Source: Paramarasmius palmivorus
Taxonomy: Eukaryota > Basidiomycota > Agaricomycetes > Agaricales > Marasmiaceae
Direction: 5' to 3'
Length of the DNA stretch: 64,000 bases
Assembly (NCBI GenBank): GCA_037176845.1
Contig: JAYKXP010000027.1
Location: forward strand, 310,001 to 374,000
Shown: positions 11,076 to 28,390 of the stretch, one piece after another
How positions within the stretch are numbered: the first letter of the stretch is position 1
Layout of the letters: the number at the start of each line of letters is the position of its first letter
Translations under genes and position numbers: made by a program
The notes under the pieces: model-generated
The model's input: only the letters and a program-made list of their open reading frames with translations
Databases searched by the model: none
Told to the model about the DNA's origin: nothing

Positions 11076-13772
11076 TTAAGATACATTAGCTACCTCATCT
11101 TTGGGATCGTACACATAAAACATCGTTTCTCTATCATCGTTCATCGCACGAGCATATTCCAACAGCAATCTATACATTGTTTGTCAGTTCCATAAGTAGT
11201 AATGGATATTCATAACGCCCACCTGAAGTTATATGCGACCATGTCTTCTCGCCTCCAGAACGACCTACTCCATTGCCAAGCATCGTTTCCGATCTCTCTT
11301 GCGAATTCATCGTGATGGTTTGTACCATCAGGATCACCATGGAAGAACGCAAACGTATCCCACAAGTCCGAAAGATCAATTTGAGTGGGTACATAATGCA
11401 CCCAGGGCTGGATGCGGTCCGTGAACCTATCTCAAAAGTGAGCTTAAAATACGAAAAGGCATTTAGATATGTGATACCATTCAGGATAGGCAGTCGCCTT
11501 GAAAATCACCGAGCCAGAACTGATTAGCCTCTTGAAACGACTTGACCAGGCGTTTCCGTCAATCTGACAAAACCAAACGTCATCAAACGTGCTTTCAGCA
11601 CTTAAGAATTAGGATACGCACGTCCAGCAAGAACTTCCTCTCCCGCCCGACCCCTTCCCTGGGAACACCATTTTGCCATTGATACCGTCGTCTGAGCTCG
11701 TCGCAAACTGCAGGTGCACACGCTGTAGGCGAACCTGAGAAAGAGATGTCCATCATAGCGTTTGTCCACTTGACACGGTCAATCTGTTCGGGAACTTGTG
11801 TTAGAGATAGTCATAGAAGGGATAGCCAGGGATATATTCTCACCTGCTTATCGAAATCCGGGCCCAATATCTTCATCTTATCGGGGTATACGGTCGCCTT
11901 TGGGAATGTTTCTACTGCGTCGCGCTGACGTAGTTCGTCCGCGATGGAAGTATTACCTGCATGGGAAGGTTTGAGTACATGTACCAGAATCGAGCATGCC
12001 GCAAAGTACCTTCAACACCAACGTCGACCCCTAGCAAGTCCATCATACGGATCCTATGAGCAAGCTCCCACTCCATGCCAGTTCCATGCCACATCCCAGT
12101 GTTGCTACCTCTCCAATGCAGGCGTTCCTCAAAACCCTTGAGTGCCCAGCGATATGCCTCCTTGGTCAGCTTCTGAACAGACACCGATGTTCCTTCCTCA
12201 GATCCATCGATGTTTCGCTTTTCCCATAACGGTAGTTCACGTCGAAGTTCGCCAAAGACATACTGAAGCTTGTCATCGTCACCAAAGTCTATGTCTATTC
12301 CCCACTCCTCGCCAATGACGGACTCGTCTATATTTGCAGGACGAGATGTTTCGGGTTTCCGGTTAGCCTCGGCAGCCGAATCTGCATTCCACTCCAGCTC
12401 CAAACCTTCGGGTACCTCTTCATCCTGGGTGTCTTCGATCCATTCCAAGGGAATCGCAGCAGTCATGTCGGAATGTAACGTGGTCGGTGAAAAGCTTAGC
12501 TATGTTTGTCTCGTCAGGTGATAGCTATAACACTAAGTACTTGAGACTTACCACACCAACCCAGCCTACTTCCTCATAATCGTCCAAAGAGTCGTACTGG
12601 GGAAGGTTTGGGCCCCGTCCGCGATCGTAGCTAAGAAATTGACCGTGTTGTCTGAACAAATGTGGATTCAGACATGGATCCATTGTAGCCGAGTGTGTGT
12701 GAATAAACGTGTGCGGAGAACTGCGCAGAGGAGGCTTCTTGTGAGGCGTGTAATCCACATGTGTATACCAAGCCGGTGACGTAGGGTCGCAAGACGATAA
12801 CCAGCCTCTTCCAGGTGGAGGATCCATGAAGAGCGGAGGTAGTACTGCGAGCTAGAGCGTCGGTGACCCTGAGTGCAAGAAAGGAAACATGTTAGACTTA
12901 CCGGAGCCAACGCGGGCACTCTGTACCGCCATATCCCACAGAACCCAGTCCTTCTGAATGAGAGGTCGGTCATCAGGGTTAACGATGATTCTAAAAGGAG
13001 GTATGTGCTTCTCGACACCGGAATCATGCAACAAGTCGATTAGAAGTCGACCACCGAATGTCATATCTTCGTGATAGGAGGTATTGTCGAAAACCCTGAC
13101 ATCTTCATTCCATGTATCCTTCCCAATCACATACACCCCGTCCTTTCGTTTTTGCAGAAAGTTGGAGTGAGCCGCCTCTAATGCCCTCGTCTCAAACCCC
13201 CAGAACACCTCTACATCTCTCCATATCTGGTCGTACTCATCAGGAAGTTGAACGTTGTGCTTCTTCACGTATGCCCACCACTTTTCGAACCCTAATGGAG
13301 GTTCTCGAGCGTAACGGCGGCGATACTCCTGAACAGCATCGAACAGCGTAAGCGATTGTCCACTGAGCTTCTGAGCCCATAAAAGGCGAGAACGATGTAT
13401 TAAGGTTTCGACTGGATGAGTGCTGTTGTTGGATAAAGAGAGGGGATTGACCTCAAGTAGGCCATTGCGATGAAATGCATGCCGGGACAACGAGGCTGAG
13501 TGCGATAACCACGTTGTAGATGCGTATGCTTTGCGCTTTCGGGGTGTGCTGGATCGTAGTTTTGGGGCCTTGGGTTTGCGCTGGTCAGCTAACTGTTCCT
13601 CCGAGTCTACCGGTTCAGCGACGACTGCGGCAGCAACGACTTGATGACTGCCAGCAGTAGCCCATAGGCTTGCTCGGAGACCAATCAAAATGATTGTGCA
13701 GATGAAAAGGAAGGTGAGGGTGGCTCGGGAGAGACGACGTGGATGGGGGATACGATATGTTGAGCGTACCAT
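11076..13772 (-). CDS. GT90 (CAP10/CAP59-type) glycosyltransferase
   Basis: Eight exons read on the minus strand: 13772-12902, 12844-12552, 12499-11957, 11924-11844, 11783-11622, 11563-11478, 11426-11223, 11169-11076; 777 residues. Residues 19-37 form one membrane segment after a basic N-terminus, so a type II Golgi protein is expected. Family hallmarks: YRRRYAREPPLGFEKWW, then DEYDQIW, a central FSPTTLHSD, and the catalytic-domain end DGNAWSSRF followed by PWVHYVP. GT90 enzymes transfer xylose, glucose or similar sugars to glycans; Cryptococcus CAP10 and Cxt1 are relatives. Acceptor and donor here cannot be told. The second exon begins at the third possible AG because earlier acceptors give stops. 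Confidence 0.9.
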
Positions 13773-14353
13773 ATCGTCGGGGGAGGAAAGGACATCGATG
13801 ATTATACAAAGGCATTTTTGTGTGGGTCGAGAACACGTTTCAGAAACCCATCACGGCAGCTGTAGCCCGGCAAAGCGTGATACGTGCAGTCAATCAGGTA
13901 CGAGGAACTGATTTGGGAAAGCGACCGAGCGACGCATGCAACGCGGGCGCCTCATTTCCTAGGACGAAAAATGCGATATCAACGAAGGAATGGGTTGTAA
14001 TATCTAGGAATTCTTGTCAATGATGAGAATGTAAGTGGCCAAGAGGGCGTTTACCATAGCGCGTCCTTGCATCACACTCGAGTGGGCTTGGGTAAAGGTA
14101 CAGCCTCCCATCAAGGAACAACCGTGCCGATGTCGCAAAAATGGCATGACTTTACAGTTGGCGGCGTTTGGTAGGCCCCCTATGAATAGATATAAAGGAA
14201 CAAATGAATATTGTCGAATCTCGCCCGTTGAAAAGGGATTATGCGTAATAGATTCGTGTGATGTCCTTTTTCCCTATTGAGTCTTCGGGAAAGCCGCAGC
14301 AATACGACAATACTCCGAGCCGTTCCAACCATTTTGGGGTAGAATGTCCTACA
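13773..14353. other. promoter region left of the transposon
   Basis: Between the GT90 start and the left terminal repeat. Contains only short unsupported frames; presumably the GT90 promoter. Confidence 0.5.
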
Positions 14354-14365
14354 TACACGGCCAGG
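14354..14365 (+). repeat. left terminal inverted repeat
   Basis: TACACGGCCAGG; perfect inverted match to 25897-25908. The similarity continues inward, with gaps, to the first GAAACAATGTTTCAA site. Confidence 0.78.
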
Positions 14366-14371
14366 ACTTAT

Positions 14372-14508
14372 TTGAAACAATGTTTCAAGTTCGGAGTTGA
14401 AGTCAGGCATCAATCAAGAATTGATGTTACACTTCAATAATTTTAAACACGCTTTCAAATCCAAGAAGCTTCACAAAAACATCAAAAGGTTTTGAAACAT
14501 TGTCTCAA
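14372..14508. repeat. left subterminal near-palindromes (2 copies)
   Basis: Copies at 14372-14388 (TTGAAACAATGTTTCAA, a perfect inverted repeat about one central base) and 14492-14508 (one half altered). The DNA between them is AT-rich with many TCAA words. Probable transposase-binding sites, by position and symmetry. Confidence 0.75.
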
Positions 14509-14598
14509 ATTGACCAAAAAGCCCCGAGCCCTTGTACGAAAAGGGTAGTACCGCCGACAATGACGAAGTCAAGCGCATTGGTGAACAAGCAAAGCCAA

Positions 14599-16261
14599 CT
14601 ACTGCAAAGGGGAACCGTACATCTTTCTTAACTCATCTGCCGTAGAAAACATACCCAAGCCTGTAGCAACTCGTTTAGCATCCTCCGCTTTCCGCGCCCT
14701 TATCATCTTTTCCGTTGCTGTAGCATTCCAATCCTCCACTGTTTGAAAATCATGGTCCACCCAGCGAAACAGCCCGCCGGCACTGTACTGTACAAACGAG
14801 TGGCGTGTTTCTCCTGGCTGTACAACGGTGTTCGAGTGAACCAGAAGGGCAGAAGGGATAAGGATTGTGGCTCCCGGTGGAAAACGTACGATCAGTCCAA
14901 GATCCCAGAGGATCAAGTGTCCACCGCGGCTGGGGTCATAATCACCCATAGCCGTTATCGCACACCAGGTGAAGGGAGAATTGTTGGCGTCAAGATGAGG
15001 GTAGCAGACGAACTGAGGACCGAAGTTCCAGGTGCAGGCTGCAAACGCCGTGTCTGGAAAGTTCAACTCCAACTCCTTGTGATGGTCAAGGAGTTGTTCA
15101 AGACCATGTTTCTGAAAGGAATGAGCTCGTGGAGCATAAAACTCCAGGAAGTCTAGTAGATAGTTAGAAAGTATATGTGTTTGAATCAATTTGGAAGCTT
15201 ACGGTTTGCCCGTCCTGACAGCCGGTGAAAGAGAGGTAGCTCAGCCAGGCTGTTGAGGACCTTCGCCGTTCGAGCTGAATGGCTCAGGATCTGCGGACGT
15301 TTCTGGCCACCGCCGAGAGAAACTCCCCTTGCACAAGCAGCGGAGGTTCCTCTATCGTTGTTTCGCTCCTTGGCCGTGAAACGTATCTCTCTTGAAGCTG
15401 CGTTTAGTGCATCCGTGCCGTCTTTCAAATGTTGTACGAACGTCGGGTCGTCTGTCTGCGCTGCACCGAGAATCGCTATGCAAAGATCCTTCTCGGTGGC
15501 AAGAATGCAGGTTTCTCTACAGAAAAATAAGCACCTTCAATCTCATCAGCCGTAACAAGGGGCTTACTTTCCGTCCCACTCAAGCTCCCTTAGCCCGGCA
15601 TCCTTGGCTTCCTTCAGCGAGTACGTCTTCTTGTTCTTTCGGCCCCTTCGAACCCCCGTCCATCCAGTTTCCACTATTCTCACTTGTCCTGTATTCAGCG
15701 TAACTGGAACCACGTTGTCTTCCGCAGACTGGGCCCCCTTCTTCACAGCGACCTTCTTGAAGGGGCGGCCTGACTCTGCTCTTTCCACCTCTCTCTTGAT
15801 TCGTCGCTGCTCGTGTTGTCGCTGTTTCTGCCGGTCGCGTTTTTCAGCCTTACGATGGCGTGGTTTTTTGGGCTGCTGGTCTGAAAGTTCCTGATCGTGG
15901 TCTGAATGGGGGCGTTTGAGCATGTTGGTTGTGTTTGAACTGCTTGGAACAGGGGTAGTTGGTGCGTCAGTCTCAATGGGCGGCAGGGGAGTTTCGGTGG
16001 CATCCTCCTCCCCAACTTCAGCCTCGTCGTCTTCAAATTCGCCCTTCCCTTGCTCCAGCTTCTCTAAACGGCGAACTTCCAGCTCTTGTAGTGCTTCCTC
16101 TGCATCGAAGCCAGTGGGAACGCGAACAATTTTGGCGCCAGGATAGCACGAAAACACGCGACTGCTACGCGTCAGCCGGGCTAATAGGGTATTAGAGTCG
16201 AGTCTTCAGACCAGCTGATGAGGTGCTCACGAAATTCAGCCAGATAATCCTGGGGAAGCAT
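14599..16261 (-). CDS. 2-oxoglutarate/Fe(II) oxygenase, TET/JBP-like, transposon-borne
   Basis: Four exons read on the minus strand (16261-16231, 16180-15568, 15516-15203, 15152-14599) give 503 residues. Residues 1-200 are charged and low-complexity with basic clusters (KKPRHRKAEKR, KKVAVKK) that could be nuclear-localisation signals. The C-terminal half is a double-stranded beta-helix oxygenase: HLD at 372-374 supplies two iron ligands, His425 in LLVHSN the third, and Arg436 in GETRHSF fits the 2-oxoglutarate carboxylate site. SLGGGQ lies ahead of the core and GGHLILWDLGL within it. All catalytic residues are present. Family members in mushrooms are numerous; assignment to the 5-methylcytosine-oxidising TET/JBP class is inference. 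Its promoter must lie between 16262 and the 3' end of the transposase-like gene. Confidence 0.68.
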
Positions 16262-16699
16262 CCTACTTGTTATCCGACACGTCAGAAAAGTCCTTGGTGA
16301 GTACGGCTGCTGCGCTCACCTGCGAGTGCTGATCTGAACACCAGGATACGGTTCCCTTCTTCTGATCGAAAGCAAGAGTCAGCTTACGCGTTGCCACTCG
16401 TTAGAACTCAGAAAAACCCGCCTGCACGTCGCGTTTTCAACGGTGCGATAGGCTTTCATCCACCAGGGTCGGGGTTTCCAGCCTTCGTAGCACGCCAAAA
16501 ACACTCACCGCGGGCAGCTTTTGGAGAAGAAACAAAGAGGAAATAAAAGCTCACCTTTCTGAGGGCGGTGGTAGCTGAAGGAGCGCGAAGCAGATGAGAA
16601 AGCAATCAACAAAAGGAGTGTCAGGTGACATTACCACGGCCATCTGATCACGGTCACGCCGACGTCGCCGTTCAATGGCTTCTCCCTTTCCAACATCTC
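16262..16699. other. spacer between oxygenase and transposase-like gene
   Basis: About 440 bp without a supported exon. It holds the oxygenase promoter and the 3' end of the upstream gene on the same strand. Confidence 0.5.
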
Positions 16700-19600
16700 T
16701 CAACGCTCAGCCCCGCCGTGCTCTTCAAAGCTCGATCTCTCCGAAAGGTTTCCCTCCAGTCTTTCCTCTTCGTACCACTGGTGCCTCAATAGGCTCGAAC
16801 GTCCGGGTACCGCTCCTCTATAAGCCGGCGTTGGACGAGGTCTATGGTCAATGAGGCCTGAGTTGTTTGGGCTATAGGGATAGGTCTGGGCATAGTGAGT
16901 AGCAGATGAGGGCCCAGTGGCAAAATTGGGTGGGATAGGTGAGGAGTACGGCCTCTGTGATTGGGCCAAAAATGTTGTACGTGCATTCTCTTGGCTGTAC
17001 ACCGCTCCGTGCCGATTTCTAGCAGCTTGTTCCTGCTGCAGTCGATTGGAACCAGGATATCCCGCTAGTGCTTCAGCTCCCCAAGTCGACCGCCCGCTTG
17101 GTAGACCGCTACCACCTGCGTGGCTTCTCCAGGCCATATTCAGAATTGGAGGGACGTTTGGCATGACGGGTGTCGACGCAGGTACTGCAAATGTGTTGGG
17201 AGAACGACGCGGTGTTGCATTGTGTGAAGGGGTTGGTGAAACGGCGGCTTGGGTGCCAGGCGGGCGGCTCGATACTGGTTCAGTTGCAGTGGTGGCCCTG
17301 TTTGTTGGACGCCGAGCTCTTTTTGCCTTCTTCCTGCCCTCCACTTCCCTCTTTGCACTCTCCTCTAAAGTCCTTTCAACTTCCAATAGAATGGGCGGAA
17401 CACGAAACTGCTGCATGTACTTTGCATCTCTCATCTGTGCCGTGTTCAGAACCATGTCGTCGAGCTTTCCAGCATGATGCACCTCTCCCTTTCTCAACTC
17501 GCTGTCCTCTCGCTCTATCCTTACCACCCGTGTATTCAATACCTTGCATTTATTTCTTATACAGTCATGCTGCACATTCGCCGTACACAGAAGGGTCTAA
17601 ATAACCATCAGCACCTTTGAAACATCGCTGCAATGCCCTAACTCACCTTACTCCCAACAAAAGCAAAAGTTTTGGGGTTGCGTGATTGAATTCGGGGCAT
17701 TCCATGAGCAGAAGCCTCAGGTCCAACGCTCAGCATTTCGATCAGCACCCCACTCGCCTCTGACTGAAGTGCCAGCGGTATGCTTTGCTGAACCCGTTGC
17801 AGCACTTCGCAAACTCGTACCACACTAAGTCCACTATCGAAACTTCCAATCGCATAGCTCCCTGGTCGACATTGGTCGCCGTTTGGTAGAACCACGTACT
17901 GTGCTGTCCGTAAATGCTTGGATGTTTTATCCGATAGATTCAATGATTGAATCTCGTGCGGGAGATGCTGCCCTGTTTGGGTCTCTTCAAAAGACACCAA
18001 GCTATCAGATTTACGGAACTTGCAGGTGTCTATTCTCGTCTGTCAGCGGGCTTTTAGAAACGTTCAAACAATATGCTACTTACTTGGAACTGTAGCAACT
18101 TTATCTTCCAATCCGAGATAACGTGCAATTGTCTTCCGTGACGTCTCAACGACTTGCACTGAGCCAGACCCAACCGTCACCCAATGTTCCTTCTTGGGCT
18201 CACAGTTCCTAAAATACCACTGAACCTCAGTGATACGCTGAGATTGAGGTAGCCTCAGGTCGTCGAATCTTTTCCGAGCAACCTCGCCAGCCTCACCCCA
18301 GTCCACCACAGCACGATCAAGGAATTTGCCGCCACTGAGCAGGTGGCGAATGCGGTCTCCTTGAGCGAATGCAAAAGCAATGTCTCTTGAAGGTGCCAGT
18401 CGATTGGAATGCGTACTTTTCGCACGAATCACTGCATTATAGGATTCGAAGGACTCGGTGGCAAAAAGCATAGCTGGTCCGAAGCGCCGTATGTGGTCAG
18501 GAAGATGGACCAAAATATGAAACTTCGGCTTGTTGAACCATCGTATTGACCAGTCTGCTGCCAGCACCAAGAAATTCTGAATCTCATCTTCGAGGGTTTT
18601 CTGAATACCTCTTGAGCGAACAGATATCTACCGCGGAAGACTGACACTCACCAAGTACTTAGGCAGATCCGTGATTTCAGTTTGCCATATCAATGGAATG
18701 AGCTTCGACAACTGAACCCAGGTTGCATAGCATTTGTCCATTACCATTCCGTGAAGCACAAAAGGCGCAACTTGAGCAATCTTCCGGAAATCGGCTCCGG
18801 TGAGTGAACCATAGTAGTTCACCAGAGTATCTCCGGCCAACAAAGATTCAAGGCCCAGTCCGTCGATACCCACTGATGATAGTCGTGCTGCAAGCTCCTT
18901 CTTCTGGTCGATGTTATCCTTGATTTGGTACTTGATCACGTCACGCCAAAGATATTTGACAAAACCGAGGAGTACAACGTGCAGGATCTCCACTGGTGTG
19001 TCCGTGTTCGGGTTCAGGGCTGAAAGCAGTCAACAATGAGCTTTACTTGTAGGAGCCGGCACCTACCTCGTATACGCCATACCGGGCTTGACGTATTGAT
19101 AGGCAACGTCTGAATTGCTGCGTCCAAAGTGTTTTGTTTCGTGGTCGATGTTCCACGCCTTGACTTGTATGAATTGAGAAGTCGATCAATAAAAAACATC
19201 TGATATCTGTCTTTCAAACCGCTTTCAGTTTGCATTTGCTTGAGCCGATTTCCTGCATGCAGAGTTTTGGCAGTGTCAAACTGTGCCGAAAGCTTCTGGA
19301 TGGAGTCGTCTCGGTTTCGAGGCTGTCCCGGCTGTAAAGGACACTTATCAATAGAGCAACATGGAAGCTAGAACGACGCTCATACCTTCACAAATTCTTT
19401 CACGCGACGTATCATTGACTCTAGAGTCTCAGCAGCCCTGCCTTTCTTCCGCGGCTTTCCAGAGGGACTTCCCGGACGACTTGCTGAGGTACTAACAGAG
19501 CCTTGATCTGACTCGACCTCGCCGTCTGACTCTATTCCTTCTCCATCACTCTCATTCCCTTCATCAACATCTAAACCTGCTGCAGCATTCTCTGCTGCAT

Positions 19601-21748
19601 CCTTGCCTTTCACCAGACATGCACGACAAAACCTTTTTCCTTTCAGGCCAATGTGGCAGGCGAATTCACTCTGCATGGGGTTATCACCAAGTAAAGCTAA
19701 CACGCATACCAATAGCAGCACTGGTTCATCTGTAGCAGAGTCCCAGGCCCAGATACCGTGAGTTTGTGCGTCTCTGGGGTTAAATTTGTTATCAACACAA
19801 TGTCTCAGTGTACAGGGGGAAAAAACGTACTCGATCTGATCAACAACACCCTCGAGCATCTCCAAGGGGGTCGCCCGGTTCGAAGTGCACAGAAAGTGAA
19901 TGTTGTAAGCCTTCGACACTTGGTCCCTGCTGAGACCTGCAGCAGTGAAGAGGAAACTATTATGCTCGTTCCATTTTTTCGACGTGTTCCCAGAAGTATC
20001 ATCACAGTACAGCCAAATGGGAAAGAGAAGGCACCGGTGATTCTTGGCCTTGTGACGCCACGGATTTCCATCTACTGGGTTTGTAATTGTCCAGGGCTGA
20101 GTAGGTGTTTCCAGTGATGGGTCGTACACTTCTGCGTACATATTGAATAGTTAGTCCTCATGATACACTTATAAACGTTAATCGACTTGCTTACCCTCGA
20201 TAAGCCGGACATCTATGAGATCAGGATGCCACTGACCCGCATCTCGCACAATCTCAGGAAAAGGCTTTAAAAACTGATCCTCTTCCACTTCAATTTCTTC
20301 CCCTTTGACCACTCGCCATGCTCGACGCCCATGCTCACGAGTGACAGGCTCCATTTTCCAGCATTTTCCCATATACCGTTCCTTGCGTGCGGAACGTTTG
20401 TCTTCCTGTACGAACCACCGATGCGGCATACACACCGAGCCATCGCGGAGCATGGCAGGCTCGAAGATATAATAATCACGGAATGTTTGTCCACGCACAA
20501 TGCGAACCATTGGACCCATTTCTTCATCGGGAATCTCCTCTGTCCACCGTGCACCCTCATTTGCTTGTGACAGCTTGTTTGGCCCGCTGTCTTTGGGATA
20601 GGTGGAAAGGTGTGTTCGCATTCTAGGGTTTGACATGATCTGATAAGATATGTTAGACGTTCTCCTGTGTCTGGACTCTGGAACAAGGGATTGAGATACC
20701 TGGGCAGCTTGATCTGCTAAGCTGTTCACATAGTAGAGATGACCTTGTGAGCCAAGGTACCGATAGGTCTGAATGCCAAAGAGTTTCTGAAGCCTCTCGT
20801 TACATGTCTTCATCGAGTCCAAAGATGGAACATCAGGTACCCCATTGATATCTAGCAGCCACAGGAAAAGATCCATCTGCCTCGTAGAAAAGGCAGATCG
20901 CGGAAGGTGCATCAAGATATCCACAGTACAGGACTGCAACAGACACTGTTCAGTTTTTATTCCTCCAGGGAGAAATAGACGCACCAAGCGGCTGTCCCAC
21001 GGAAACCACTCCTTGGATATAGGGGTATTAGCATTTCGTCTCGTTCGCTTCGCGGCGGGCCCAACAAATGCAGTTTCCCCTTCATCATCAGAGCTGGGTG
21101 GCGACTCGGGATCAGGTATTTCACCAGGCCCTTCGTCGTCATCAGAGTGAATCAGATCTGGACCATACTCCAGATAATGAAGCAAACGCTCAGCCAGAAC
21201 ACTTGTTGAAGTATACGCTGGTGACGCATCAGCAGAAGTCCCTTCCCTGGCCAACTGCTCTGCATAGTCACGGTCCATCTCTTCCCAATCTACAACAGAG
21301 GGCTTTGGTATGTGACCCACTTGCTGATACCAATCATCGAGCTCAGAAAGATGAGGTACTGTCTCACGTGGGACTTCGGGAGATAGGAAGGACTGCCAGA
21401 ACCGAGTAGAGGCAGCATCTCCAGTTGTTCGAATTGGCACCGCTGGCCCAGAGGGTCTACTACCCAGTGATGCTTCGAAAGTACGCGTTCGAGTAGAGGC
21501 ATGGGTCTGGGCGTCATGTTGATTCTGTTGCCGGCGAATTCGTTCGAGCTGTTTCTTGTGTGAAGAGCTCTGTTCATGTTGTGTTCGAGAATACAGATCT
21601 CGAAGCTTTCTATCTTGACAAATTTTGCAAGACACCACCCATTGGCCGTTTTTTTCTTGGACCTCCCAGACTATAGACTCTCGTGAATAATATTCAAGTA
21701 AAATGCTGTAAAGAATCACTTACTGTTTGGGTCAACATCAGATGGCAT
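16700..21748 (-). CDS. Transposase-like protein, 1519 residues, N-terminal zinc finger
   Basis: Ten exons read on the minus strand: 21748-21724, 21670-20700, 20639-20195, 20131-19831, 19773-19386, 19331-19067, 19019-18652, 18600-18084, 18029-17647, 17596-16700. All joins keep frame, without a stop. Cys23, Cys26, His40 and His46 (SCKICQ...H...H) form a BED/C2H2-like DNA-binding finger. A low-complexity acidic linker follows. The core contains CDDTSGNTSKKWNEHNSF, HFLCTSN, GIWAWD, GDNPMQSEFACHIG with nearby Cys pairs, and DTPVEILHVVLLGFVKY. I recognise this layout from large transposon-encoded proteins of mushrooms, but I cannot assign the exact superfamily or catalytic triad. The last exon has QHDC..NKC and a disordered tail. 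Its finger and the terminal palindromes suggest it moves this element. Confidence 0.72.
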
Positions 21749-21899
21749 TAGATGACTTGTGCGTGCAGAGGGCATGTCAACAGTGGGAGATGATGGTGGA
21801 AAGGGAGAAAGCGGAAAAACGTGCATCACGTCAGCACTGCAGGCAATTTTGCAAGGAACAATTTTGCATTGCACAAGCATGTATTTACAGAGCATTTAT

Positions 21900-22704
21900 C
21901 TACGAGTGGTATTTACGCAAATGTTCAACGACTTCTGGCCCAGGATTGAGGACCGACGGAGCAAGGAAAAACGTCGCCGGGCTAGGGGGATCAGACGTCT
22001 CATGGTCTGACACATTTCTGGTGCGATCAAGATGCTTCTGAATGGTGGCAGAGAGCTTCTTGTTTTCGTGTCGAATGTGGATGTAGGCGTTCATCTTCTC
22101 CTGGCGATTGAAGCGCTTGAGATAGAGCTGTGAATCAACAAGTGGACGACGGAGCGAGCGAATTTGGCGGCGCATGCTTCGGACCAGCTCTTCCGTCGCT
22201 CTGAGACATCCAAGTCGTGCTTCCAGAAGCTTGAGTCGATTGGCATTGGACTTGGCGATAACAGCCTTCTCCCAAGGCAGTTCCGGAAACATGTTGTCTA
22301 AGACATTGGTGAGCGACCTATAAATAAAAAAAAAGGTAATGAGGACGTACCAGAAAATCTAACAGCTTCTTCTGCCTCCTTGGCCCCACTGTCTACGTCT
22401 GGCCTCAGGTTCTTCTTTGCTTTGACGGCAGGAAGACTCTGGGCGAAATCGCTTGCAGCGGCATTCTCATGGGCATCTGCCTCATCAGGATCCATTTCCA
22501 GAAGGGTTCGAAGCTCATGAAGATCATCGTGAACATCGACAAGATCTTCCAAGCAAAAGAGAAGCCGGTCTCCCAGGGAGAGAGCACCGTCTGCTGGATC
22601 CATGGGAGCGGAGCTACTAGATGAAAGTCAGCATATGTGGGAGGCCTGAAAGAATAATTGTTGAATCAGACATACACGGAGTTTGGGTCAGAATCATCGG
22701 CCAT
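21900..22704 (-). CDS. Small helical transposon-borne protein, unknown function
   Basis: Three exons read on the minus strand, 22704-22676, 22616-22351 and 22297-21900, give 230 residues. The N-terminal half is acidic and helical (LEDLVDVHDDLHELRTLL), the C-terminal half basic with coiled-coil character (ANRLKLLEARLGCLRATEE). The first residues MADDSDPNS resemble the first residues of the neighbouring transposase (MPSDVDPN), both encoded by tiny first exons. It lies upstream of the transposase on the same strand, stop at 21900 and next ATG at 21748, and shares a 220-bp divergent promoter region with the gene at 22925. Likely an accessory protein of transposition; no family recognised. Confidence 0.65.
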
Positions 22705-22924
22705 GAGTCGGAGTGCTTGCGTGAGGTTGGATGGGGGATTGGGAATGGAATCGCCGCTTTTAAAGGAAGTGCCGCTTTTATAGAGGCGCGGAGGTCACGT
22801 TTTTGCACCTTTGTTGATTCTGCGTCGTGTTTGGCCTCACGCGTATTCTGCATGACTGGCGATGAGCGTGCCACTATAAAAAGGGCACTCTCTTTGCTAT
22901 CGCTCCCCGCTTCCACTGTACACC
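22705..22924. promoter_or_regulatory. bidirectional promoter inside the transposon
   Basis: The 220 bp between two divergent starts contain a TATA box for each direction: TATAAAAG on the minus strand at 22782-22775 and TATAAAAAG on the plus strand at 22875-22883. Two genes of the element are therefore likely driven from one short region. Confidence 0.55.
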
Positions 22925-24731
22925 ATGTCTGGGACACAACCGACCTTTTTCTTTCCCAACGCAACCGACTCTCATCTCCAAACCCCTGCTCGTCCGAACT
23001 CGGCCATTGACACGCAAGGCATGGGATTGAACGGAATGAACTCGCCTTCTCCAATGGGCATGTGTTCATCTGGAGCAAATGGGAGTGCACCGCCATTACC
23101 ATCCTGGCAGCATAGTTCATCACCATCACCGTCACCAACGCCTTTCCACTCGCACGATGAATCCCAGCTCGGGCACGGTAATCCGCCGCTGTCATTCAAT
23201 CAACCCACCACTCGGGTCACCAGCGTTGCGGTCGATAATTTGGCTCTGGACTTTGATCTACTTGATGTGCAGCGAGATGACATGCAAACATTCACTCGAG
23301 TGAGTATCTTTTTCATGGAACGAAACGGCTGGTGGTAACAACTTCCCTTAAGCTTGCGAGTCAAGGCGACGGCTTGAACGACACTCAGCTTGCATGCGGA
23401 TTGTTCATTCTGGCAGTCTTGTTCTCTTGCTTCAATCGTCGTCACGATGGGGATGCCAATGCGGAGTCATTCAAGACTATGCTGAAGGAATTGAGGACAC
23501 TGTTGGATGACAACTTCAAGCTCACAAATGAGCAGACAGTACGTGATTCTTACCTCTGAAATATTTATCCCATCTGAAAATGAGCAACAGAAAAACATTC
23601 GCATCATCGTTCAAGAGCTTTTGTACGACCCAAAGCGCGTCTGTTACAAGGGCCTGGCAATGGATGTTTTTGTAAGTGGATTACGCATTCATAGGCAGCG
23701 ATAAACTTAATAGGGCCGCACAGGACTACATTGAAAAGCATCAAGCAGCAATGAGGTTCCATAACATCTTTGGAAACCCTGCTCGCATGAAGGTTCTGGA
23801 GAAGGCGGTGACCGATACATCATCTAGCGTCCGCAACTCCTTCCGCCAGACTGTGAGTCCAACGTCTTGTCGCCGATGCTCATTACTGACAAGTGAGCCA
23901 GATTCGAGATGGGATGGGGAAGTCGCTTCACGAGTTCACACTGATGACGAACTCAACATACATGCGAGCTGGTGGGGCGAGGTATAAGCAAGAGATGGTG
24001 ACAGTCAAAAACGCAATCTTGGTACGTACTCATGGTGTTCAAGATAGTTGCTGCATAGATCTGATTGAGGAAACAGAGACGCTTTGTCTTCGACAACAAG
24101 GCTCTGGTATGGGCAGACGAGAAAGCAGACGGCAGCGACGGACCAGACGGAAATGTTGAACAGGGTGGCGAAGAACCGGCTACCAAGAAGAGGAAGCGTG
24201 GAGGACGTGTTCCACCTGAGAAGGACTTTTGGTTGAAAGTGGACGAATGGTTCGTGAAGGAGATCGAAGATAATAAGCGAGGAACGGACATTTCGAGTGA
24301 CACTTGGCGAGGGTGAGTGAGCCATCCTTGATAGTTGTGCATTGACCGAGTTCATCCTGGACAGGTACTTGAAAGACGTAGTAGCCTTCGACGTGGCCGG
24401 ATTTCGAGAGCCTGCACCAGTACCCTTCTCTGCAGTATCCCAACAATCGGCCCCTGCTCCTGTAAACCCTTCACCGCCCAGTCCGCCGGCCAGCATCAGT
24501 GCTCAACACACTGCCAATCTGCCAGCTCCAGGACTCAACACTGGCTTCCATCTGAATCCTAACCTTCCTACGCAGACTCGGATGCTCAATTCGTCCTTTG
24601 GATCAACTCCCTATCTGAATGCCTCGTCACCAATGAGTGTTGGTTCGGTACAGGGGCCACAAACGACTCCGAGCTCTGCTCCAGCAGGGGGTCAACGTGG
24701 CGGAAGGTTCTTGACTGGTATCCTCAACTAG
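22925..24731 (+). CDS. Transposon-borne nuclear-type protein, unknown function
   Basis: Seven exons (22925-23299, 23353-23538, 23591-23671, 23724-23852, 23902-24021, 24077-24312, 24365-24731) give 497 residues. The N-terminal ~100 residues are Ser/Pro-rich; the centre is helical and contains SSSVRNSFRQ followed by a conserved-looking SLHEFTL...RRFVFDN region; TKKRKRGGR is a likely nuclear-localisation signal; the tail is Pro/Ser/Ala-rich. I associate this type of protein with transposon-rich regions of mushroom genomes but know no function. It is the only plus-strand gene of the element. Confidence 0.65.
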
Positions 24732-25760
24732 AATTGCGATTAGAATACTTGATATGCCTTAGTAGCTATAGTACGCACCTAAATAAACATTTCCTGAGCA
24801 ACTGTCTGTGAACGCGACGCAACTTGGGCTTGATCGAGATGGGGTTGAAATTTGCTTCCGTTGACGCGAGTGGAAAGTCGACTCGGGTCTGCTTATGTCA
24901 GGTTGAACTTCTCTGTTTTCAACGCTCACTTTCGCACTGGCCTTGCACTGTCCCCAGAAGACAAAGTTAACCTGCTGCAAACGTCAATCGAGTTATCAAG
25001 AATTCAAAACCTCAACAAGACCTCTCATATCTCACCACGTCAAGCCTCAATCTGTCCAAAAAAAATTTTGCTGCAAAGTCCTCAAAGATCGTTGACCTCG
25101 GGATGACCTCAAGACCTCAAGGGTTCAACGGCTTCAATTTCTCTGTCAATGTGGCTTTTTTCCTTTCAAGCGGCTCAATTTTCAAGCATTTCAACGCTCA
25201 GGGGCCTCAACATTCAAGCGTTCAATCTCTCATCGAGTTGGCTGTAAAAACGTTCGGCAAGTTCGTCAAGAACACATCAAACGCCTCAAGGTGCTTAGCC
25301 TCACGCTGTCAACTTCAAGGTACACAAGTTATGTATCAATTTGGACGCCGCGGGTCTCAACGTTGTTTGGATTCAACGTCATTTTGGATTCGACGCCGCA
25401 AGTTTTGGTACCGTTGTCAGCTCAGGAGCAGAATTGGGGCTGCATGTTTCGGTCAGTTTTGGCTTATTGATGGTACGGTGTCTTCTACTTTGGCTTTTCG
25501 GCTGGTCTCTGACTTGTGCTTGCAGGTTTCGAGTAGACTCAGGCGCTGCGGTATGAGCGAGCCAGTTTCAACAGCTCGGCAGCAGGGTAACATAAGGTAA
25601 ACTTATTTGGATGCATAGGTTTTGTGTATTATATAGCAAAAATATAATTTATTGGTACTGTTCATCGATATGAAGGCATTGAGAGGATACCAGAAAGTAC
25701 CGGGAAGGGGCGGAACGGTCGCCCAAGCATAACCGGAATCGGAATGGCGTGACCTCAGCG
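24732..25760. other. right inner region of transposon, dense in TCAA words
   Basis: No supported gene. From about 24960 to 25330 the tetranucleotide TCAA recurs every 8-15 bp, mostly as CTCAA or TTCAA on the plus strand, without a fixed period. The same word is common between the left subterminal sites. It may be a decayed array or a protein-binding region. Confidence 0.55.
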
Positions 25761-25889
25761 TTGAAACATTGTTTGAAGGAAGTGAACCTAGGCATCAAGC
25801 AGCCGAAATTTCAATTTCCTATTTTTCAAACATTGTTTCAAGATCTGGAAACATCAGCGAAAGCTAGCCAGATTGAAACATTGTTTCTC
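25761..25889. repeat. right subterminal near-palindromes (3 copies)
   Basis: Copies at 25761-25777, 25825-25841 and 25873-25889 of TTGAAACATTGTTTCAA with one to three changes. The innermost bases AACATTGTT are constant. Matching copies sit at the left end. Confidence 0.75.
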
Positions 25890-25896
25890 AGAATCC

Positions 25897-25908
25897 CCTG
25901 GCCGTGTA
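25897..25908 (-). repeat. right terminal inverted repeat
   Basis: CCTGGCCGTGTA, exact reverse complement of 14354-14365. Confidence 0.78.
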
Positions 25909-26701
25909 GAAGGTGCGATAATTAGATCAGTTGGCGTGCCAATAGTATCAATCTCACCTTAGCCATCGAACAAGCAATCGTATCTCGCCAACGCTCCCAA
26001 TATTCAAATACCCAACAGATACAGCCTTCCGTCGTACGGCTGTCGATGATGGCATCGGAAGCATGGACAGTGCTCGTCGTCTAGAGATGTTATTCGGTTT
26101 GATGACTGTTGCATGGGTACGATGTCGGCTGCTGACCTTTTGTACACGTTCTCGAGATTATACCACAAGATTTAAGCCGAGCAGCCTGGATAGAAGTAAC
26201 CTTTACATCAGAGGAAAAGATACGATGATGAGTATAGAGCCTCAGCATCGAAGTGAATGGGGCTCACCTGTACTAGCAGTAGGAATATAGCAACACCCAT
26301 TGTTGACACGAAAAATGCTGTCTTGTAACTGACGAAGACAGCGCAGTTAGGGCCCTAATTTCACATATTTGACGTGATACTTCAGAGTCCCAAGAGACCT
26401 TTGGATTGTACGGGCAATTCCGAGCGACCATGGGCGTAAGAATCGGAGGGAGAGCATTTCATGATCAAGCTTCAAGGAGAACGTCGGACGTGGTCATAAG
26501 CCTTACGATACAGCGTGAGAATCAAATACTTCATCTAGAACGCGACTAGCGCCCAGCGAAGAAAGGCTCTTGTTCCACAACTCCCACATAGGTTCTGAGA
26601 CAAGTCGGTTTTTCTCGCTGGTGCGAATTCATTCCTCAATGCATAATTAATTAACGCTAAAAATCGTGGTTTGGTATAATATAGGACTTCGCTGGTGGAA
26701 T
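25909..26701. other. spacer right of the transposon
   Basis: Flanking DNA plus the promoter of the F-box gene. Only short unsupported frames. Confidence 0.5.
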
Positions 26702-28390
26702 ATGGCATCGTCCAACATACGAGTAACTTTACCACATCTCCGGGCGTCAAAACCACCGCTGCCTATCGCAGAGCTGCAAGAGAAACTACGCTCCCCGGAT
26801 AGCTTTCCCCAAAAGAATCACGGAGAGATATCTGCGTACATTCAGGATGCAGAACATGATGTTCGCTTGTACGAAGCTTACGTTCAGCAACTACGGGCCA
26901 AGCAAGCAGCGCTTCAACGAGACATAGCTTGTTACACCTCTCTACAATCTCCTATTCGACACCTACCCACGGAAATTCTACGCGAAGTCTTTCGGTTTGC
27001 GAAAGGAAGCATTGTGCTCGGTTGTAAAGATCGACAATCCCCCGCATTCGTCCTGAGTGCTGTCTGCAGCCGCTGGCGCGAGGTGGCTCTAGGTTTCCCA
27101 GAGCTATGGTCTGACATAGTCATCATGCTGGACAAGAAATACGAGGACGAGGTCAAGTTGTGCATCGAGCGCTCGCGTGAACATCCCCTTACCTTGGGCG
27201 CGTTTGGACCACAATCGGTGCCTGTTTTCGAATGTCTTCGCGAACAAAGACATCGTTGGAGACAAGTCGAGGTTCCGCAGTCTCTCATAGAGCTTTCGAG
27301 CTCCAGTTCCACCGGAGGTATCCCGATGTTGAAGTCGTTATTATACTCAGCAAGCCGCCTAAATACGGTACCCTCCGATATGCTGGATTGGGCGGCGATA
27401 GTGCCAAATTTACAGGAATTGTCTAGTATCGGCGGAGCACCCACTTCTATCGACAATTTTCCGTGGAGAAAGATCCGTTGTCATACAATGCAACACGGAG
27501 GTCCCGTTAGTCTGCGAAGCGCCATTCGGGCACTACGTCTATCGTCAAACCTGGTCTACTTCAAATACCAAGGACTCGCATCTGCCCTTCAGCCGGATAT
27601 CACGATACAATCATCATACACTGAACGACTCCCAGACTCCGACCTTCAGCCCCTCGTAACCTCGAAGATCGAGTCACTCCACTTTCACGTATGGGACGAC
27701 CGTGGCACTTACGCTTTGTTGGGCGACTTCCTCCGAGCAGTTCGCCTTCCTTCTTTAACCGCGTTGAGCATTCATAGTGCCTGCTCTGGAATCAAAGACC
27801 AAGAACACAACCGGGCGACTGCGTTCGAGGGCGAATGGCCTAGGAATATTGTGGACGCCTTCATGGCCCGCTCACGCTGCCAGCTTCGAACGTTGGAATT
27901 GTGCGGAATGCCACTCACGGACTCAGACGTCCTAGCTATTCTCCATCTCACCCCAAATCTCGAGGAATTCACCGTACACGAGGTGTTTGCTTCCACCTGG
28001 GACCCGACTCCCAAAAGCCCTATCAGCAAAGTTGCTGCCGTGCCGCACGACCTGCTCGTCGAGACAGTCACCACTCATCTCCTGGAACAGCTTCAGAATC
28101 CTGAGCTGGATGCGAGTGCGTTCAGGGCACAGAGGCACGCTTTAGTACCCAAGTTGAAGCGGTTGAGGATGCGGACACAGCAACATTTCCGTGCAGACGG
28201 AGCTTTTGTGCAGCTGGTATTGTCAAGATGGTATTGTGGAGTGGGTAGCAAGGTTGAGAGGCTGAAGGAAGTGGAGCTGACGGTTGTGCACTCGCAGGTG
28301 TTAGAGCCTGAAGTGTATGAACCATTGAAGGCTCTGGAGAGGGGTTGGCTGATGGTAACGGTGATCGACAGTAGTGGATATGTAGTATGA
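26702..28390 (+). CDS. F-box protein with leucine-rich-repeat-like C-terminus
   Basis: Single exon, 562 residues from the ATG at 26702; the frame is open for 36 bp upstream, but this Met has the better context. A helical, probably coiled-coil stretch covers residues 44-80. The F-box at about 83-140 reads SPIRHLPTEILREVF, then SAVCSRWREVALGFPELWSDI. The remainder has irregular leucine-rich segments (LRTLELCGMPLTDSDVLAIL, LTPNLEEFTV). Such proteins are substrate adaptors of SCF ubiquitin ligases; mushrooms have large, rapidly evolving families with exactly this coiled-coil/F-box/LRR order. The target is unknown. Confidence 0.88.
   Translation: MASSNIRVTLPHLRASKPPLPIAELQEKLRSPDSFPQKNHGEISAYIQDAEHDVRLYEAYVQQLRAKQAALQRDIACYTSLQSPIRHLPTEILREVFRFAKGSIVLGCKDRQSPAFVLSAVCSRWREVALGFPELWSDIVIMLDKKYEDEVKLCIERSREHPLTLGAFGPQSVPVFECLREQRHRWRQVEVPQSLIELSSSSSTGGIPMLKSLLYSASRLNTVPSDMLDWAAIVPNLQELSSIGGAPTSIDNFPWRKIRCHTMQHGGPVSLRSAIRALRLSSNLVYFKYQGLASALQPDITIQSSYTERLPDSDLQPLVTSKIESLHFHVWDDRGTYALLGDFLRAVRLPSLTALSIHSACSGIKDQEHNRATAFEGEWPRNIVDAFMARSRCQLRTLELCGMPLTDSDVLAILHLTPNLEEFTVHEVFASTWDPTPKSPISKVAAVPHDLLVETVTTHLLEQLQNPELDASAFRAQRHALVPKLKRLRMRTQQHFRADGAFVQLVLSRWYCGVGSKVERLKEVELTVVHSQVLEPEVYEPLKALERGWLMVTVIDSSGYVV

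What the first reader, a model, noticed from the sequence alone, without database searches (positions are those of the whole stretch)
14354..25908. Apparently complete 11.6-kb transposon carrying a TET/JBP-like dioxygenase
Seen: exact 12-bp inverted termini, matching subterminal palindromes at both ends, and four undamaged gene models in between. Known: fungal TET/JBP genes can be cargo of KDZ-type DNA transposons. Inferred: this is a young, perhaps active element that brings its own candidate DNA-base-modifying enzyme. The exact transposase class appears not to fit the KDZ or Plavaka motifs I remember, so it may be a distinct lineage.
Basis: partly seen in the sequence, partly recalled or inferred. 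Interest (0 to 1): 0.9.

Follow-up and report, generated by a model that had tools for sequence, protein, structure and literature searches.

The report
RAG1-like mushroom transposon carrying TET demethylase
An 11.6-kb stretch of a mushroom genome, bounded by matching inverted ends, encodes one protein predicted to fold like the RAG1 recombinase and another predicted to be a TET-type DNA-demethylating enzyme, so it is likely a transposon that would shield itself from silencing by DNA methylation.

Summary
Host: Paramarasmius palmivorus. Exact 12-bp inverted ends (14354-14365, 25897-25908) enclose three subterminal palindrome-type repeats per side. The exact core palindrome occurs three times in 68.3 Mb, twice here, outermost at each end. 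Four intact spliced genes encode a 1548-aa transposase, a 503-aa TET/JBP-type enzyme and two proteins with almost no relatives found.

The transposase matches neither KDZ nor Plavaka Pfam models. Its D, D, CxxC, HxxxH, E layout is kept in 38-40 of 40 homologues, and a homologue's predicted model matches RAG1 first: a CMCT (CACTA/Transib/RAG1-type) element, EnSpm versus ESTA unresolved.

The TET model matches CcTet first, but by position its pocket has a TET2-like Asn. Of 81 TET loci in the genome, 51 lie near KDZ hits and 0 near Plavaka hits. Four of nine loci of this transposase have a TET gene.

'Young, perhaps active' is not shown: single copy, no empty site. TET-carrying fungal transposons are published (PMC12730594); this combination is a new variant.

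The parts
14354..14365 (+). left terminal inverted repeat TACACGGCCAGG; its first TA may be a target duplication, the end then being CACGG
25897..25908 (-). right terminal inverted repeat, exact reverse complement of the left one
14371..14511 (.). left subterminal array: three palindrome-type repeats at 14371-14391, 14441-14461 (degenerate), 14491-14511
25761..25890 (.). right subterminal array: three palindrome-type repeats at 25761-25778, 25825-25842, 25873-25890
14599..16261 (-). TET/JBP-type dioxygenase gene, 4 exons, 503 aa; H372, D374, H425 triad
   Evidence: model; identical to VNI00_008103; fold; residues
16700..21775 (-). transposase gene, 9 exons, 1548 aa; CxxC..H zinc-finger-like N-terminus (from residue 32), D554, D640, C659/C662, H978/H982, E999/E1002
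   Evidence: model; motifs; fold of a homologue
21900..22603 (-). 216-aa predicted protein, 2 exons, function unknown; no other copy found in this genome, not searched in the protein database
22925..24731 (+). 497-aa predicted protein, 7 exons, function unknown; one weak relative (Scleroderma citrinum)

Best explanation
This is likely a complete cut-and-paste DNA transposon whose transposase is predicted to have a RAG1/Transib/CACTA-type core and which carries a predicted TET-type 5-methylcytosine oxidase that would counter methylation-based silencing of the element. Shown: the inverted ends, the paired subterminal repeats, four open genes, the DDE-plus-zinc motif layout, and purifying selection on the last TET exon against its closest relative. 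Inferred: the transposase would bind the palindromes with its N-terminal zinc-finger-like segment and/or through an accessory protein, bring the ends together, cut at CACGG and integrate at a TA. Inferred too: the TET enzyme would oxidise 5mC on the element's promoters and ends so that host methylation does not shut it off. The Asn at the substrate pocket predicts 5mC preference rather than the combined 5mC/6mA activity of CcTet.
Against: No second copy, no empty site, no expression or methylation data. The TET protein itself has no Pfam Tet_JBP match, no sequence match to solved structures, and about 12% identity to CcTet. CpG ratio of the element is lower, not higher, than the rest of the window (0.84 against 0.94). 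The RAG1 match is of a homologue's model with mean pLDDT 74 and 11-12% identity.
Confidence: 0.62

Rival explanations
1. The TET gene is a passenger: TET genes are common in this genome and one was caught between the ends by chance, with no role in the element's life cycle.
For: At least 81 TET loci in the genome; the TET genes of this transposase lineage do not form one clade, and five of the nine loci found with the transposase show none within 8 kb (C21 and C127 were not fully fetched).
Against: Four of nine loci of this transposase have one, three near it against about 0.2 expected in the coordinate count (which included C52); strong purifying selection.
Confidence: 0.2
2. Two or more nested or decayed elements and host genes lie side by side, and the 12-bp repeat is a coincidence.
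For: 12-bp inverted pairs are common in the window; no duplicated target longer than TA; the 216-aa and 497-aa genes were not found elsewhere in the genome (216-aa) or in other Paramarasmius proteins (497-aa).
Against: Palindrome arrays at both ends, outermost centres 26-27 bp inside; host genes start again roughly 0.5 kb left and 0.75 kb right of the ends.
Confidence: 0.07
3. The dioxygenase acts on something other than 5mC in DNA (thymine, 6mA, RNA or a host target), and helps the element in another way than demethylation.
For: Only fold and residue positions were tested; FTO and AlkB structures also match the model, more weakly.
Against: TET structures rank first; Asn377 sits, by gap-free position, where human TET2 has Asn1387.
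Confidence: 0.11

Closest known systems
ESTA (EnSpm-like elements with TA duplications, TET+ in Pucciniales; PMC12730594)
   Same: RAG1-like CMCT transposase; TA on both sides and CA..TG ends are compatible; carries a TET gene.
   Different: Known TET+ ESTA are from rust fungi with PU-type TET; here a mushroom. ESTA sequences could not be fetched, so kinship is untested.
TET+ EnSpm of fungi (PMC12730594)
   Same: CMCT transposase, CAC..GTG ends if the outer TA is set aside.
   Different: 3-bp target duplication is absent here (ATA/TAG); the Agaricus bisporus TET+ elements carry PE-type HxE enzymes in that paper's text, here HxD.
Plavaka (PF18759)
   Same: Also CMCT; profile comparison aligns about 150 columns around HxxxH..E (78.8%, E 1.6e-5).
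   Different: No Pfam match; ends are not TGT..ACA or CATCA..TGATG; 0 of 81 TET loci lie within 8 kb of the 53 Plavaka loci used.
KDZ (Kyakuja-Dileera-Zisupton) elements with TET
   Same: Same TET family: 51 of 81 TET loci of this genome lie within 8 kb of a KDZ hit.
   Different: Transposase has no PF18758 match and the RAG1-type motif layout; no 7- or 8-bp duplication.
CcTet of Coprinopsis cinerea
   Different: 12% identity; by gap-free position Asn377 and Cys383 stand in place of Gly331 and Asp337.

Membership tests
CMCT clade of transposons | DDE catalytic residues with C(2)C and H(3-4)H between second D and E | tested here: met
   D, D, H, H, E in 40 of 40 and CxxC in 38 of 40 (two gaps) aligned homologues; positions in the window protein D554, D640, C659/C662, H978/H982, E999 or E1002
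CMCT clade of transposons | RAG1/Transib-like fold | tested here: met
KDZ | PF18758 transposase domain | tested here: not met
   no Pfam match at E up to 1
KDZ | 7-8 bp target-site duplication | tested here: not met
   flanks differ at every length of 3 or more for both readings of the ends
Plavaka | PF18759 transposase domain | tested here: not met
   no match; none of the 105 genome matches is on C27; distant profile match only
Plavaka | ends TGT..ACA or CATCA..TGATG | tested here: not met
   ends TACACGG..CCGTGTA or CACGG..CCGTG
EnSpm (fungal) | ends CAC..GTG | tested here: inconclusive
   met only if the outer TA is not part of the element
EnSpm (fungal) | 3-bp target-site duplication | tested here: not met
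   ATA against TAG outside CACGG..CCGTG; ACA against GAA outside TACACGG..CCGTGTA
EnSpm (fungal) | Transposase_21 domain (recalled as its Pfam model) | tested here: inconclusive
   1 of 40 homologues at E 0.04, and DUF4218 in 2 of 40 at E 0.16, all weak; none in the window protein
ESTA | TA target-site duplication | tested here: inconclusive
   TA on both sides of CACGG..CCGTG, but no empty site to tell duplication from repeat
ESTA | transposase groups with ESTA in a tree | not testable with these tools
   ESTA sequences are in a supplement that could not be opened
TET/JBP dioxygenase | TET-type double-stranded beta-helix fold with H-x-D..H metal site | tested here: met
   fold; H 47, D 46 and H 48 of 48 aligned
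TET/JBP dioxygenase | Pfam Tet_JBP match | tested here: inconclusive
   17 of 48 homologues match (best 9.5e-7), the window protein does not
TET/JBP dioxygenase | oxidation of 5mC in DNA | not testable with these tools
   needs an enzyme assay
AG-type TET (PMC12730594) | Asp at CcTet 337 and Gly or Ser at 331 | tested here: not met
   Cys and Asn at these offsets in 48 of 48; offset is gap-free, not from a superposition
PE-type TET (PMC12730594) | HxE in place of HxD | tested here: not met
   H372-x-D374; D in 46 of 48, N in 2

The most novel reading that the evidence does not exclude
A distinct Agaricomycete lineage of RAG1-like CMCT transposons, outside Plavaka, KDZ, EnSpm and ESTA, has repeatedly captured TET genes of a further type (HxD with a TET2-like Asn, neither AG nor PE). 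It couples a palindrome-array end-recognition system to a self-encoded 5mC eraser: a transposon that demethylates itself before it cuts.
Probability: 0.3. Interest if true: 0.75.

Novelty: new variant of a known kind. Interest (0 to 1): 0.57.

Why it matters
TET-carrying transposons of fungi are catalogued, but the function of their TET genes is not experimentally tested (PMC12730594). This locus offers defined ends, a RAG1-type transposase and a TET enzyme whose pocket makes a clear prediction (5mC rather than 6mA). If true, it makes directly testable the question whether transposons carry TET genes to erase their own silencing marks, and it ties a RAG1/Transib-type transposase to an epigenetic eraser. 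It also points to a widespread Agaricomycete transposase family (558 relatives at E up to 0.001) of which none of the 40 members scanned has a confident Pfam match.

Tried and rejected
KDZ and Plavaka as the transposase class: rejected by Pfam. The 12-bp repeat as sufficient proof of the ends: rejected, such pairs are common. Same ends or palindromes in the related loci C121, C271, C265, C25, C115, C23, C278, C52: no convincing match; one search asked for 12 bases from CAC with one mismatch and so missed the element's own ends too, which match over 10 bases from CAC, from TACA, found them. Empty site in the genome: none. Sequence searches of solved structures with the TET exon, the transposase profile, the TET profile and one TET relative: no relevant match. 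CpG depletion as a sign of escape or youth: uninformative. Transposase and TET relatives on one contig in other species: contig lengths of the two hit lists compared by eye, none shared but the host's own; the lists are the best 120 of 558 and of 302. Rfam: nothing at gathering scores. C121 TET gene: no transposase of this family in the 20 kb fetched. In the structure tables, families not listed are not excluded.

Rows left out: one search used 81 of 90 TET matches (nine rows taken as further exons of a listed gene), 145 of 178 KDZ matches (listing cut; further-exon rows dropped), 53 loci from 105 Plavaka matches (rows of one gene merged by eye) and 10 transposase loci (nine, plus the C52 fragment). 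C52 was fetched for its TET gene, so I quote 4 of 9 without it. C25 and C115 TET genes were found only by tblastn in fetched DNA (C115 weakly, E 5e-6). C21 and C127 were held only as pieces of about 3.4 kb or less. The tree used 47 of the 120 listed TET homologues and three own-genome fragments; C271 and C25 are long branches whose joining is weak; 39 of 500 label shuffles were as low. The dN/dS value uses only the last TET exon; C52 was saturated, as were the two transposase stretches against C271, one of which holds a stop. The first gene models were wrong and were corrected.
Full report
What is there. The window lies on contig C27 of a 68.3-Mb genome. A protein search gives the element's transposase as VNI00_008104 of Paramarasmius palmivorus on a contig of 616,197 bases, the length of C27, so the host is that mushroom. 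Between 14354 and 25908 the ends are exact 12-bp inverted repeats. Each end carries three palindrome-type repeats near TTTGAAACAWTGTTTCAAA, the outermost centred 26-27 bp inside each end.

Is it more than chance? The 12-bp repeat alone is not: 1174 such inverted pairs exist in the window, against 65 on average in 20 simulations, and the 12-mer's three genome sites (two of them here) are no more than its reversed control's four. The palindromes are: five of six matches with at most one mismatch in 64 kb lie at the two ends, against at most one match in any of 100 shuffles, and two of the three exact sites in 68.3 Mb are the two outermost copies (reversed control: one site). Given two such points, a 12-bp inverted repeat just outside both is rare: 5 of 200,000 random pairs.

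Genes. Spliced models give a 1548-aa transposase, a 216-aa protein, a 503-aa TET/JBP-type protein and a 497-aa protein, all open, with 18 GT-AG introns of 47-63 bp. The TET and 497-aa models equal annotated proteins; the annotated transposase has 1511 aa. The 497-aa protein has one relative at E up to 0.001 (29% identity over 53%, Scleroderma citrinum); the 216-aa protein has no second copy in this genome and was not searched in the protein database.

TET protein. The model (mean pLDDT 82) matches CcTet first, then NgTET, CMD1 and TET2. The window protein itself has no Tet_JBP match in Pfam; 17 of 48 homologues do. The metal triad is H372, D374, H425. By gap-free offset, the place of CcTet Gly331 and human TET2 Asn1387 is Asn377, and that of Asp337/Thr1393 is Cys383, both invariant in 48 of 48 (CcTet and TET2 residues from passages of PMC11040006). 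PMC12730594 says that AG-type enzymes keep Asp337 and have Gly or Ser at 331, and that PE-type enzymes have HxE; this family shows neither. The PU signature is not spelled out in the text I read. The last exon is under strong constraint against the C121 TET gene (dN/dS 0.076, 182 codons).

Context in the genome. Of 81 TET loci, 51 lie within 8 kb of a KDZ hit (about 2.7 expected if placed evenly), none near the Plavaka loci used (1.0 expected), and three near this transposase, C52 included (0.2 expected). Two more, C25 and C115, were found by tblastn in fetched DNA. Of the nine loci found with the transposase, four therefore have a TET gene: C27, C271, C25, C115. In C27 and C25 it lies downstream on the same strand, in C271 upstream on the same strand, in C115 on the other strand. 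In a 50-row tree the TET genes of this lineage (C27, C52, C271, C25) need three changes, and starred branches force three; C271 and C25 are long branches, so I read at least two captures as likely, not proven.

What it does. Most likely the element moves by cut and paste and uses the TET enzyme against 5mC silencing. That function is the published proposal for TET-carrying transposons and is untested. The host has four matches to the C5-methylase family, one with stops. Plant elements encode proteins that lower methylation of their own copies (Spm TnpA, VANC, MURA; PMC10398659 passages); whether the palindromes guide the transposase, an accessory protein or the TET enzyme here is inference. 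Against: the CpG ratio is not raised and there are no activity data.

Youth. Neither end has another copy and no empty site is held. Two stretches of the C271 transposase are saturated at synonymous sites. Intactness supports recent function, not recent insertion.

In print. PMC12730594 does not contain the word Marasmius. Six held papers name Paramarasmius palmivorus; five were listed, and none of those titles or abstract starts deals with transposons. In Marasmius oreades, KDZ and Plavaka elements dominate the DNA elements and Plavaka was defined there by PF18759 (PMC8290104 passages). Within these searches I found no description of this element.

Noticed in passing
whole genome G000: At least 81 TET/JBP-type loci in one mushroom genome, 51 of them within 8 kb of a KDZ transposase hit and 27 with none of the three transposase types examined nearby.
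   Followed up: partly
16443-16492: A 50-bp block upstream of the TET gene is 98% identical to C52 (L033:7199-7248) although the TET genes there are only about 66% alike at the protein level. It may be a shared promoter element or a small repeat.
   Followed up: no
22925-24731: The 497-aa gene inside the element has a single relative in 5.8 billion proteins at E up to 0.001 (Scleroderma citrinum, 29%).
   Followed up: no
L015, L016, L029, L031/L032 (C21, C127, C23, C278): More distant relatives (about 25-40% identical) with STSPHA and DNPxQ motifs: apparently a second CMCT subfamily, and their places are not among the PF18759 matches.
   Followed up: partly
genome C211:21102 and C130:96108: The only further sites of the 12-mer end and of the exact palindrome in the genome; their surroundings could not be fetched (for C211; C130 not asked).
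   Followed up: no
12852-13850 (-) and 26651-28390 (+): Host-like open frames on either side; the right one looks like an F-box protein by eye. The element lies in the gap between them, roughly 0.5 and 0.75 kb away.
   Followed up: no
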